DNA of 64,000 nucleotides from Delphinus delphis (taxonomy: Eukaryota; Chordata; Mammalia; Artiodactyla; Delphinidae). How positions within the stretch are numbered: position 1 is the first letter of the stretch; the number at the start of each line of letters is the position of its first letter. Below the pieces are notes generated by a model. That model had not been told where the DNA came from, made no database searches, and was given only the letters and a program-made list of their open reading frames with translations. The DNA lies in assembly GCF_949987515.2 (NCBI RefSeq), contig NC_082700.1, positions 41,069,380-41,133,379 of the forward strand, read 5' to 3'. The position numbers were made by a program, and so were the translations under genes. Of the stretch, positions 59,271-64,000 are shown piece by piece.

Positions 59271-60489
59271 TGAAGAGAGAGGTGGTTTATGTTAAAAAAA
59301 AAAATTAATGTGGAAGAACTGTACCACATTCATGCTGAACTCTGACTTTAAAAAAATAAATAAAGCTTCATGTTCACTAATGTTTTGTAAATAGAAAATT
59401 TGGTTAGGGTTTTCTAAGTCTGTAGTCACTTGCCAAACACGATCAAAGGTGTGCCATTTGGCTTCTATTACAAGACGGGATCTGTGTGTACTCCCTTCTC
59501 CATAAATATTGATATTTTGAAAAAAGATCCGTTTGTTAAAATCTGAAGCTATGTGGATGAAAAAAAATTTCTGTAGGTTTTGCTTTAGGCCAGGTGTTAC
59601 TATTTTAATACCTTAAGTGAAGAAAGATGAATTAATTCTTAAGGAAAATAACACTGAACTTGTACCAAATTCAACTATTTTGATTCATCCATCCATGACA
59701 GTTATAAACTAGAATATCATTTAAAAAGGTATCTATGCTTCTGAGAAAGGAATATCACAACATGCCATCAGATAGAATCTAGTAGTTGTACAATCCCTAA
59801 GACAAGAAAATACTGAATCATAAGCCCTAACAATGACTTATATTTATTAGAGCAAAAAATTGAGGTACATAAATATATTTTCAGACAAACATAAACTGAT
59901 ATAATTTGTCTCTAGTAGACAAAGTGTAATATTAATAGGTATTTTATAGGAGGAAATTAAGTGATACAAGATGGAAGCTCAGAAGTTTAGGAAAGAAGAG
60001 CAAGAGAAAGTATAAAGTTATGGTAAACTTTCATGTGCATTGACTGTGTAAGAGAATACAATAATCTCATATTTGGTTAGGTCCTCTGAGAAACCAAAAC
60101 CAAGACAGGATTTAGTATGCGTTATTCATTAGAACTATTAGGGAAAATAACAGGGGTGTTGAAGAGCCTGGGAGAGATTGTTAGATTTCAATACAAGTCT
60201 AACCTCAAGTGAAGGAGAGAAGAAAGGAAGATTAGGTGAAAGTGTTAGGCTGCCCCATATATCCAAGGAAAATTTGGCAAGACAGAGGCCCTCAAGCCAA
60301 ACTCTACTCTTAAAGGATTTCTGTACCCCTTAGGAATGGGCTTGTGTCAGAAACATTTTAATGACCAACTATTGGCTGGAAGTAACTCATGGAAAGCCAG
60401 ACCTTGTGTGAAAACAGTGATCAGTTTCAGAGTTAAGTAGCTGGTGTGCTCAATAAAATAAATTCCCTGTACTTGAAGATATGATAATC
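59271..60489. other. Mostly single-copy DNA
   Basis: No supported feature. 60100-60440 is less AT-rich and may be an old LTR, but I see no clear signature. Confidence 0.4.
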
Positions 60490-61800
60490 ACATTATCATG
60501 GTATATACCTAGGAGTGGAAATGCTAGGTTATATAGAAGTTATATGTTAACATTTAAAAATCTGCTAAACTGTTTCTTAAAGTGACTGCAATATTTTACA
60601 TTCCCATCAAAGTCTATCAGAGTTCTAGTTTATTCCTCTCCCTGCCAACACATTGTATGGTCATCATTTTTAAATGTGAATCCATCTAATACATGTATAA
60701 TTGTATCTCATTACATTTTAAAATTAATATTTATGCTAAGCATCTTTTTATATGTTTATTTGTCATTTCATATATTTTTGGTGAATTGTCCAAACTTTTG
60801 TGCATTGTTATAATTCAAGTATAGTTGTCTTACAATATAATGTTAGTTTCAGGTATATAACATAGTGCTTTAATAGTTTATAGGTTATACTCCATATTAA
60901 TTTATTATAAAATATTAGCTATATTCCCTGTGCTGTATATTACATTCTTGTAACATTTATTTCATATCTAGTAGTTTGTACTACCTAAGCCTAACATTTA
61001 TTTTGTCCTCCCAACCTTCAGCCCTCTGTTTTGTTATATTTATTTGTTTTAATTTTTAGATTCCACATATAAGTAGACATATTTGTCATTTTCTGTCTGA
61101 GTTATTTCAGTAAGCATAATAACTTCCAGGTCATCCATGTTGTCACAAAAGACAAAATTTCATTATTTTTTATTGCTGAGTTTGTGCAGCTTTAAATTGG
61201 ATTGTTTGCCTTATTAAGTGTTAGAGTTGTTTTATACATATTCTTGGATACAACTCTTTCATCATATATATTGTTGCCAATAATTTACCAGTCTGAGATA
61301 TATCTATTAATTTTCTTAACAATGTATTTTGAAAAGCAAACTTTTCTATTAAATTTTGAGGAAGTCCAATTAATCACTTTTTATCCTTTTATGGGTCATG
61401 CTTTCGTTGTTGTATATAATCTTTGTACAACCTAAAGTTGCAAAGAGATTCTACTTTGTTTCTTCTGGAAATTTTATAGACATAGCTTTAATTTATGTCT
61501 CAGATCTATTTTGAGTTATATTTTTATATGAGTGAAATAAGGATCTATGTTCATTTATTTCTATATAGATATTCACAACCAGCATTGTGTTACAAAAATT
61601 ATGCTTTTTCATGAATAACCCTGACACTGTTGTTGAAAAATTAATTGGTCATATATGCATGGATCTGTTTTTAGATCATATGTCAATTTAAATTATTTGT
61701 GAGTTATGACATCAATACCACACTACCTCAATTATTGTAGCTTTATATTAAGTACTGGAATCAAGTACTGTAAGACTGACAAATTTGATTTTTATCAAAC
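60490..61800 (-). mobile_element. Old L1 ORF2 fragment split by another L1
   Basis: Plus strand is the complement of old L1 ORF2 C-terminal/RT-side text: 'tatacctaggagtggaaatgctagg', 'actgtttcttaaagtgactg', and after the insert 'aaattggattgtttgccttatta', 'ctcagatctattttgagtta', 'caataccacactacctcaattattgtagc'. Interrupted at 60805-61180. The satellite-like array begins directly after it. Confidence 0.75.
60805..61180 (-). mobile_element. Nested L1 3'UTR insertion with target duplication
   Basis: 'aattcaagtatagttgtcttacaatataatgttagtttcagg' to 'tcattattttttattgctgag' is minus-strand L1 3' end, about 376 bp. TTTGTGCA is found at 60797-60804 and 61181-61188, where the host L1 stops and resumes. 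Confidence 0.8.
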
Positions 61801-61804
61801 CTGT

Positions 61805-64000
61805 TTATAACAAGAAGAAATCCTCTATATTCATTATAGGAGAAATCTGTTTAACCTTAACTTCTGAAAAGCTTCCACTCCAATCACCTAAAATACACTT
61901 AGTCTCAACAATATGTAGAAAAATAAATCACTAAGTGTATCAAACTTGGGTATGATTTCCTTTCACTGAAAGAAGACTGCCAAGAAAAATTCTTGTGGAT
62001 GGCTGTATGAAAAGGTTTTCTGGTTACTATGTGAAATTCTCCATTTTACGCAGGTTGAAAATGTCTTTATTTCTATTTTCAGTTAGAAGCTTGAATGGAG
62101 AAAATGCTCAAATAAGCCTATAGAAACACTAGCGTTACATGTTTTTTAAATAATACTCTATCAACTTCAGTCATTTGGCATAAGTTCCTTATACTGAAAG
62201 AGGACTGTGCATCAAATTTATTTCATCTAGATTGTAAAAAACACATATATCTAGTATATGGAAAGATGTGCTTCCATGCCTTCTGAACAATTTTCAGTGA
62301 TGTTTGCTTTGAGAGCACAGACCTTAGTGCAGCTTTAAAGTAAACCTTAGAAAGTGTAGGTGTGCAGGTCTCAAGTATTTCAGTTCATGCACAAACTTGT
62401 GAGTGCAATTTCCGTATACTGAAAGAACACTGCATAAGTTTTCTTTCATTTGGATAGTGAAACACACACATATTTAAACTCTGGGAAATAAGTCTTTCCA
62501 GTCTGAAAGGCTCTCAATTCTATTTGCCTTTGGAACATAGACCTAAGCGTACCTTAAACTACAAAGAGCACTATTAACTTTCTCTTAAACTGTACACTAC
62601 ATACATCACACTCTTAATATCTCTTCCACTCATTGCAAGAATAGAATGCTTAGTTCACTTTGCCAGAAGCATGTTCCTCTATGTTCCTTATTTGATAGTA
62701 CTGTTTAACTATGCCTTCTGAAAGGCTTTTCTTCCATAAGCACACTTAGTTAACTTCATCACTCAGGAATATAGATAAGCTAGGCTTACAAGTATCAAAA
62801 AGAAATATTAAATATATCAAAACTAACTATAATTCGTATTACTGAAAGAACATTGCCAAGAAAACAACTTGGAGGTAGCTTTGTAAAAATGTCCTCTGAA
62901 TACTGTGGGAACTTCTTTGTTCTATGTGGGTAGAAAAGGCACTGGATTCTATTACCAAGTAACTGTGTTGAGGAAAAACTCAAAGAGCTTAGACTTTTAT
63001 TTGTCTGTTAAATAGTCAGGACCTGCTTCAGCCAGTTTGGGTAAGTTTCCTATACTGAAGAAAACAATACATAATTTCTTTCATTTAGCTTGTAAAAAAA
63101 AAATATTTGGGAAGCAAGTCCTTCCATGTCTTCTGAACTGTTTTCACTGATATACATCTTGAGAGTGCAGAACTTAGAGCAGCTTTAAAGTAAAACTTAG
63201 GAAGTATAGCTATTCAGGTCTCTCAAGTCTTTCAGTACGTGCTTATGCTTTTGGGTACAAGTTATATGTACTGAGAGAACACTGCATAAAATTTCTTTCA
63301 ACTAGCTTGTGAAAAATACATATATTTCCACTATGGGAAACAAGCTTAACTAGAGAGTTTGAAATATTCTCACTACTATTCACATTTGGAACATAAACCT
63401 AAGTGCAGTTTAAATTACCTCTAGAAAGAGCTACATTAAAGTTCTCTAAAAGTACACACTACATATATCACACTTCTAGTATATCTTTCATGAAATGAAA
63501 GAACATAGTGCATAGTACTTAGTTCACACAGAAAGAAGCAGTCTGCTACATTCCTTAGAAGATAATCCTGCTTAACTATGCCTTCTGAAAGGTTTTTCTT
63601 CGATTGTACTTAAGCACACTCAGTTAACTTCAACAACACATAGGAATACAGCAATGCTAGGTTTACACATATCAGAAAAAGAATTGCTAAATGTATCAAA
63701 CATGGGTAATTTTTCCTATTATTGAAAGAACACTGGCAGATCATCTACTTGGGATTAGCTTTGTATAAGGTCCTCTGAATATTGAGGGAAATTTTACCTA
63801 CTATGTGGGTTGAAAAGGCCTTTGATTCTACTCTCATTTGGTAACTGCATTGAGGAAAGTCTCAAAGAGACTATAGAAACCATAGAATTACACATATTTT
63901 ATATAACATATGACCTGTTTCATGAAACTGGGTTAAGTTCACAATACTGAAAGAACACTGTGCATCAAATTTCTTTCTTCAAGATTTAAAAAGTACATAT
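61805..64000. repeat. Higher-order tandem repeat, four diverged ~220-bp monomers per ~870-bp unit
   Basis: A marker close to ACTGAAAGAACACTG recurs at 61965, 62193, 62418, 62632 (decayed), 62841, 63054, 63270, 63494, 63721 and 63946: steps of 228, 225, 214, 209, 213, 216, 224, 227 and 225. Every fourth monomer is most alike: A to A is 876 then 880, B to B 861 then 892, C to C 852, D to D 862. Examples are 'cttctgaaaggctttt' after 'tttaactatgc' at 62704 and 63571, and 'gcagctttaaagtaaa' at 62330 and 63179. It starts part-way through a D monomer at about 61805 and leaves the window. No coding frame. The family is not recognised. Confidence 0.88.

What the first reader, a model, noticed from the sequence alone, without database searches (positions are those of the whole stretch)
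61805..64000. Unrecognised higher-order satellite-like array at the window end
Ten monomers of about 209-228 bp form a repeating A-B-C-D order with a unit of about 850-890 bp. Monomers of the same letter in successive units are clearly closer than neighbouring monomers, the mark of higher-order amplification known from centromeric alpha satellite and other satellites. The monomer length and sequence do not match alpha satellite (171 bp, CENP-B box) and I do not recognise it. It abuts an old L1 with no spacer, so an array edge may be captured. Two units would be about 1.74 kb, close to the reported length of the common cetacean satellite, but that is only a coincidence of size until aligned.
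Basis: partly seen in the sequence, partly recalled or inferred. Interest (0 to 1): 0.8.

Follow-up and report, generated by a model that had tools for sequence, protein, structure and literature searches.

The report
Fossil satellite DNA, once centromere-like
The window ends inside the decayed remains of a layered tandem repeat that is scattered over several chromosomes of this mammal and seems to keep the ghost of a centromere-protein binding site, so it may be the fossil of an extinct centromere repeat.

Summary
From 61,811 to the window end there are 11 head-to-tail units (9 complete, 207-229 bp) in the order D ABCD ABCD AB, period ~850-880 bp. The ABCD grouping is the best of 1,260 partitions. 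The array abuts a truncated L1.

The genome search, answered after repeated tries, shows more. The array is short (14.6 kb span, ~4.6 kb of repeat, two L1 insertions) and ends. The same order recurs in decayed blocks: nine loci on seven contigs carry the unit, and 82 of 87 scorable neighbours at seven of them keep the order. The '220-bp monomer' is itself a diverged dimer: a ~113-bp tandem repeat beside the C3 block, and at six further loci, matches all eight half-units of the 887-bp repeat.

Across A units one site looks like a CpG-decayed CENP-B box; no copy holds it intact.

Best reading: relics of an extinct satellite family, perhaps centromeric, inactive now. It is not alpha satellite by length and shows no sign of being L1-derived, coding, structured RNA or an ordinary interspersed repeat. 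Age, presence in other mammals and CENP-A binding are untested. Dfam/Repbase could not be searched, so prior cataloguing is possible.

The parts
60493..61808 (-). Old L1 fragment (ORF2 region read on the minus strand), interrupted at about 60818-61185 by a second L1 3' end; its truncated end abuts the array
   Evidence: Alignment to other L1 copies of the window to 61757, 61763 and 61792; a fourth, gap-rich alignment runs on to 61868; weak, untested similarity to ~61810. Naming as L1 ORF2 is by recall
61811..61964 (+). Monomer D (5'-truncated) at the array edge
   Evidence: 79 bits to the D profile
61965..62193 (+). Monomer A, unit 1
62039..62055 (+). Decayed CENP-B-box-like site in monomer A1 (1 mismatch on the decay-tolerant core)
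   Evidence: row C18_41131342; place
62194..62417 (+). Monomer B, unit 1
62418..62624 (+). Monomer C, unit 1
62625..62838 (+). Monomer D, unit 2
62839..63052 (+). Monomer A, unit 2
62915..62931 (+). Decayed CENP-B-box-like site in monomer A2 (0 mismatches on the decay-tolerant core; reads TTTG...TGGG)
   Evidence: row C18_41132219; place
63053..63268 (+). Monomer B, unit 2
63269..63492 (+). Monomer C, unit 2
63493..63719 (+). Monomer D, unit 3
63720..63943 (+). Monomer A, unit 3
63794..63810 (+). Decayed CENP-B-box-like site in monomer A3 (2 mismatches on the decay-tolerant core)
   Evidence: row C18_41133099; place
63944..64000 (+). Monomer B, unit 3, cut by the window end; the array continues to G000:C18:41145810 with two L1 insertions

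Best explanation
This is one relic block of an extinct, three-layer satellite DNA family. Shown: a ~113-bp tandem repeat, a ~220-bp unit that is a diverged dimer of it, and an ~887-bp higher-order unit of four such dimers (ABCD), present in decayed blocks on several contigs, with units too diverged for present homogenisation. Inferred mechanism: a 113-bp array was dimerised; the four-dimer unit was amplified by unequal exchange and spread between non-homologous chromosomes; homogenisation stopped; blocks were cut up by L1 insertion, inversion and deletion and drifted apart. Inferred more weakly: the higher-order form gained a CENP-B box in its A dimer and served as centromeric or pericentromeric satellite. 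Present function: probably none. The confidence below is for the relic-satellite reading; the centromeric step alone I put near 0.5.
For: Order: 82 of 87 scorable neighbouring pairs keep the ABCD cycle over 7 loci (C18 21/21, C3 18/21, C8 29/31, C8:26.74 Mb 9/9, C14 2/2, C1 2/2, C13 1/1); the letter profiles were built from C18, C3 and C8:27.9 Mb units, so the last four loci, 14 of 14, are independent. Hierarchy: the 113-bp profile matches the 887-bp consensus in register at seven places with E<=3.6e-5 and weakly (E 0.037) at the eighth; all eight half-units score z 5.4-12.7 against its consensus, while 14 of 16 pairs of a first with a second half have z<=1.8 (exceptions 2.8, and 6.0 for two segments that overlap by construction); reversed sequence gives 0 hits to it. 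Decay: unit-to-unit K2P 0.34-0.39 on C18; an L1 sits inside the array with a 14-bp perfect duplication at its ends and differs by K2P 0.15-0.32 from window relatives, a SINE nested in it by 0.13-0.21 (only matches with E<=1e-50). CENP-B box: consensus site 257 (A dimer) has one mismatch to the 9-base core (0.35% of 2,000 Markov sequences); in 29 aligned A units the two dinucleotides read CA 14/TG 3 and TG 13/CA 7/CG 2, products of CpG decay; 8 of 28 A units match the decay-tolerant core exactly against 0 of 27 B, 0 of 29 C, 0 of 23 D.
Against: No copy carries an intact CENP-B core: the minimum is 2 mismatches of 9 over 90 + 118 matched stretches, and window copies differ at 5 or more of 17 bases. 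The box was found on a second look after that negative scan. A decay-tolerant core arises somewhere in an 887-bp unit in 4% of 600 simulations and about 0.13 times per 887 bp of this window; only the joint criterion (core plus 17-base agreement) was never met (0 of 600; 0 in 61.8 kb). 12 of 29 sites do not read CG/CA/TG at the first dinucleotide, 7 of 29 at the second; with at most one mismatch C units also match (7 of 29). No locus was placed relative to a centromere. Known repeat content is small (27.6 kb of summed matches over 9 loci, including C3 113-bp copies).
Confidence: 0.68

Rival explanations
1. A relic satellite that was never centromeric (for example a subtelomeric, interstitial or macrosatellite-type array); the CENP-B-like site is chance.
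For: The site is decayed and was sought post hoc; decay-tolerant core matches occur about 0.13 times per 887 bp of window. No centromere mapping was possible.
Against: CA/TG alternation at both dinucleotides, restriction of exact decay-tolerant matches to A units, and the joint core-plus-17-base criterion absent from 600 simulations and 61.8 kb.
Confidence: 0.4
2. An old interspersed element that carries internal 220-bp tandem repeats, so that the scatter is transposition, not satellite spread.
For: Copies lie on many contigs in small numbers.
Against: Block ends fall at different places of the unit (C18 4 to 396, C14 395 to 173, C13 433 to 887, C9 191 to 479); units are repeated head to tail in several blocks; no collinear unique flank was seen, apart from 9 short unexplained matches between five pairs of loci.
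Confidence: 0.07
3. A functional non-coding locus (repeat-rich lncRNA, small-RNA cluster) kept by selection.
For: Order persists over deep divergence; one hairpin-prone stretch near 62276.
Against: No Rfam match at gathering score, no consensus RNA structure over 9 monomers, folding energies like the rest of the window, most conserved stretch not significant (permutation p 0.10), 24 of 28 gaps not multiples of three.
Confidence: 0.05
4. The decayed rim of a satellite that still has a homogeneous core elsewhere in this genome.
For: Weak gradient: the two inner units are closest in 89% of bootstraps; three C3 units are less diverged (K2P 0.20-0.26).
Against: The C18 array ends after about 5.5 units; in three answered genome searches the non-self matches longer than 60 bp have at most 81% identity. 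These searches score only best candidates and skip very common words, and unassembled satellite would be missed.
Confidence: 0.12

Closest known systems
Primate alpha satellite (monomeric flanks and HOR cores)
   Same: Head-to-tail monomers, HOR units made from diverged monomers, HOR types shared by chromosomes and a box-free monomeric layer beside box-bearing HORs (last two recalled); layered ageing as described for human chromosome 8 (PMC8099727, abstract and passages)
   Different: Base unit ~113 bp (not 171), no live homogeneous core found, units only 68-78% alike, no intact CENP-B box. Sequences were not aligned
New World monkey 343-bp centromere repeat
   Different: Here one step further: the diverged dimer was multiplied into a four-dimer unit and then died
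Common cetacean satellite
   Same: Two units here (~1.75 kb) are near its recalled length
   Different: Reported as L1-derived (PMC9659126 and PMC8909793, passages); this array gives only short hits to the L1-rich window.
Horse 37cen satellite
   Same: 221-bp unit, mammalian (PMC9024551, passages)
   Different: GC-rich, highly alike monomers, CENP-A-bound; this is AT-rich (34-36% GC) and decayed; resemblance is of length only

Membership tests
Satellite DNA with higher-order repeats | Head-to-tail tandem monomers | tested here: met
Satellite DNA with higher-order repeats | Monomers n positions apart closer than neighbours | tested here: met
   lag-4 score 484 v 109.5-197 at lags 1-3, 5-7; tree support 93-100
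Satellite DNA with higher-order repeats | Same HOR shared by arrays on several chromosomes | tested here: met
   82 of 87 neighbours in order over 7 loci; the contigs are 79-185 Mb long, taken as chromosomes
Satellite DNA with higher-order repeats | Near-identical HOR copies (ongoing homogenisation) | tested here: not met
   Unit K2P 0.34-0.39 on C18, 0.20-0.45 on C3, 0.28-0.48 on C8: a relic, not an active array
Satellite DNA with higher-order repeats | Large arrays (tens of kb to Mb) | tested here: not met
   Largest block found about 9 kb of matched repeat in 30 kb; loci found are a lower bound
Centromeric satellite | CENP-B box NTTCGNNNNANNCGGGN (motif recalled) | tested here: inconclusive
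   Absent intact; consensus 1 mismatch, CpG-decay pattern in A units
Centromeric satellite | CENP-A occupancy or location at a centromere | not testable with these tools
   Needs ChIP, FISH or a centromere map
Alpha satellite | ~171-bp monomer | tested here: not met
   Units of 207-229 bp and ~113 bp
Alpha satellite | Sequence similarity | not tested
   No alpha-satellite sequence was fetched or typed
Common cetacean satellite | Derived from L1 3' end | tested here: not met
   Only four 15-30 bp hits (best E 7e-4) to the first 59 kb of the L1-rich window; the satellite itself could not be aligned
Interspersed repeat | Common ends of the copies | tested here: not met
   Block ends differ in unit coordinates; no collinear unique flanks seen

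The most novel reading that the evidence does not exclude
This is the fossil of an ancestral mammalian centromere satellite, older than the L1 and SINE copies now nested in it, that followed the alpha-satellite path on its own (monomer without box, dimer, HOR with a CENP-B box) and then went extinct; its scattered blocks mark former centromere or pericentromere sites.
Probability: 0.3. Interest if true: 0.85.

Novelty: new member of a known kind. Interest (0 to 1): 0.66.

Why it matters
Centromere satellites turn over fast: one survey found no similarity of candidate repeats outside groups whose most distant members diverged about 50 million years (PMC4053949, passages). A relic family that keeps its layers, its order and the ghost of a CENP-B box on many contigs would let extinct centromeres be mapped and would test whether the monomer-to-HOR-with-box path of primates is general. 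The blocks on which Tandem Repeats Finder was run (window, C3, one part of C8, C6) escape it, so similar fossils may be overlooked elsewhere.

Tried and rejected
Rejected: coding repeat (no listed open frame of 90 aa or more in the array; 24 of 28 gap lengths not multiples of three); structured RNA; tRNA; segmental duplication of one locus (9 matches of 42-256 bp between five pairs of loci stay unexplained, none next to both arrays; one of 119 bp starts right after the C3 block but lies 6 kb from the C8 block). A 110-bp sub-repeat is not visible in the window alone (0 shared 9-mers at offsets 90-125); it emerged only from the C3 monomeric array. I first read the CENP-B box as absent and revised this only for the multi-locus consensus. 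A second box in the C dimer (consensus 701, 4 of 15 units mismatched) was dropped: by unit coordinates it lies about 13 bp off the homologous place.

Led nowhere: plasmid search (no match); viral-contig patterns (0 hits; 1 hit); prokaryote genome-contig pattern (43 hits, no more than chance gives for 16 bases); none of these 44 records contains the repeat. Letter profiles on reversed sequence gave 5 and 5 hits at E<=1, at most 9.9 bits, below the 25-bit cut used. Ten paper searches listed no description that I recognised as this repeat. I saw passages of PMC9659126, PMC9024551, PMC10919930, PMC8099727, PMC8909793 and PMC4053949, and listings of the rest. Dfam and Repbase were not available.

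Full report
WHAT IS THERE. From 61,811 to the window end lie 11 tandem units, nine complete, all on the + strand, in the order D ABCD ABCD AB. The unit repeats every 850-880 bp. The grouping is the best of 1,260 partitions of the nine complete monomers, letters group with 93-100 support, and offsets of 845-890 and 200-235 exceed those of 122 other slices of the window. No other match at E<=1 occurs in the window. The left edge falls inside a D unit at the truncated end of a minus-strand L1. L1 similarity can be followed to about 61,760-61,790 and weakly to about 61,810, where D similarity begins, so there is no clear spacer.

THE WHOLE ARRAY. The window is C18:41,069,380-41,133,379 of a 2.66-Gb assembly. 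The array runs from C18:41,131,190 to 41,145,810, about 4.6 kb of repeat or 5.5 units. Two insertions interrupt it. One is a 2.1-kb L1 with one part inverted. The other is a 7.7-kb L1 with a nested tRNA-type SINE and a 14-bp perfect duplication at its ends. After both, the unit resumes within about 30 positions of where it stopped; shortly after the second about 95 positions are missing. No further match was found up to C18:41,170,999. So this is a short, bounded block and not the rim of a large array on this chromosome.

THE FAMILY. Two answered genome searches with different copies gave nine loci of the 887-bp unit on seven contigs: C18; C3:17.71 and 112.64 Mb; C8:27.93-27.96 and 26.74 Mb; C1:155.29; C13:12.18; C14:57.33; C9:36.14 (checked by profile). 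C9 and C3:112.64 hold less than two monomers each. Of 156 monomer matches at E<=1, 114 were scored with confidence (at least 25 bits, 5 bits ahead of the next letter); 42 were set aside. The 114 give 87 close neighbouring pairs, of which 82 follow the ABCD cycle; the five exceptions are CA twice, AC twice and BD once. Profiles were built from C18, C3:17.7 and C8:27.9 Mb units; at the loci not used, 14 of 14 pairs keep the order. Reversed sequence gives no unit match. Units of C18 form one group; C3 and C8:26.7 Mb units fall among the C8:27.9 Mb units. The C8 block contains arms in opposite orientation. Flanks of the loci share dispersed repeats; nine short matches remain unexplained but none is collinear at two arrays.

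A DEEPER LAYER. Left of the C3 block, C3:17,708,520-17,710,449 is a tandem array of about 113 bp (13 clean monomers used, mean 66% mutual identity). Its profile matches the 887-bp consensus in register at seven places (E<=3.6e-5) and weakly at the eighth. Each of the eight half-units resembles its consensus (z 5.4-12.7), while first and second halves of the 220-bp unit mostly do not resemble each other (14 of 16 pairs z<=1.8; exceptions 2.8, and 6.0 for two segments that overlap by construction). The 220-bp monomer is therefore a diverged dimer, as reported for the 343-bp New World monkey repeat (PMC4053949, passages). The same 113-bp repeat, without clear four-dimer order, forms relic arrays at C6:96.83 Mb (21 profile hits), C8:1.99, C10:46.70, C2:124.47, C9:11.28 and C22:62.23 Mb. 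Further BLAST matches that I did not fetch lie on C1, C2, C3, C6, C8, C9, C10, C11 and C13. In total 11 contigs are confirmed by profile and a twelfth (C11) by BLAST only. Tandem Repeats Finder reports none of the blocks it was run on.

CENP-B BOX. A scan of the window copies was negative, and no matched copy at any fetched locus comes closer than 2 of 9 mismatches to the core. The multi-locus consensus, however, has at position 257, in the A dimer, CTTCATTGTATGCGGGT, one mismatch from the nine-base core (motif recalled). Order-1 Markov sequences reach this in 0.35% of 2,000 trials. The mismatch is TTCG to TTCA, a CpG product. Of 31 A units, 29 align there: the first dinucleotide reads CA 14, CC 4, TG 3, CT 3, TA 3, GG 2; the second TG 13, CA 7, AG 4, CG 2, others 3. 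Exact decay-tolerant core matches occur in 8 of 28 A units of at least 120 bp and in none of 27 B, 29 C and 23 D units; with one mismatch allowed, 17, 3, 7 and 1. The place is the best of 206 positions in A (22 of 29 copies with at most 2 mismatches; the next position 42% of 24). The majority base at each column gives 2 mismatches to the exact core. Against it: decay-tolerant core matches are not rare (9 in the 61.8 kb outside the array; 4% of 600 simulations); only core plus 17-base agreement together was never seen by chance. I hold the box as probable, not proven. The 113-bp consensus has no such site (4 of 9 mismatched), which parallels box-free monomeric and box-bearing HOR alpha satellite (recalled).

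AGE. C18 units differ by K2P 0.34-0.39. The L1 inside the array differs by 0.15-0.32 from its window relatives and the SINE inside that L1 by 0.13-0.21; seven SINE copies in the window differ by 0.19 on average. The array and most of its divergence thus seem to predate these insertions. With a recalled neutral rate of about 2e-9 per year this is of the order of 90 million years. Satellite regions can mutate more than 2.2 times faster (PMC8099727, abstract), which would give about 40. Branch lengths differ much between loci, so I give no firm date.

MECHANISM. Shown: three nested repeat levels, shared order across contigs, units too diverged for present homogenisation, later transposon insertion. 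Inferred: dimerisation, amplification by unequal exchange, spread between chromosomes, extinction. Inferred more weakly: centromeric or pericentromeric use through CENP-B. Layered ageing, in which new repeats push older ones outward, is described for human chromosome 8 and is the model I lean on.

LIMITS. The host is taken as a cetartiodactyl, perhaps a cetacean, from SINE type by recall. No other mammal could be searched. Genome searches score only best candidates and many requests did not complete, so locus counts are lower bounds.

Noticed in passing
L084 and G000:C2:124421628-124503420: The same pair of 113-bp-family monomers recurs at four places about 6-38 kb apart, which looks like a local segmental duplication.
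   Followed up: no
G000:C8:27950899-27955848 (L065): Two satellite arms meet head-on at about 27,953,850; the unit left of the joint differs from the two inverted units by K2P 0.39 and 0.46, so the inversion or palindrome is old.
   Followed up: partly
G000:C8:27927391-27929372 (L062): Two three-unit variants (D-A-C, B missing) occur beside the normal four-unit order, as in HOR deletion variants of alpha satellite (recalled).
   Followed up: partly
L071:2422-2559: A 58-bp minisatellite (2.4 copies) about 3 kb left of the 113-bp array on C3.
   Followed up: no
window 59292-59612 (-): A 106-aa open frame that reads protein-like but has no Pfam match (E<=0.1) and no PDB match better than E 0.14.
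   Followed up: partly
window 1-60000: AT-rich stretch with many L1 fragments (recognised by recall in the frames) and tRNA-type SINEs (7 copies compared); no gene was recognised, though only 7 frames were scanned against Pfam.
   Followed up: partly
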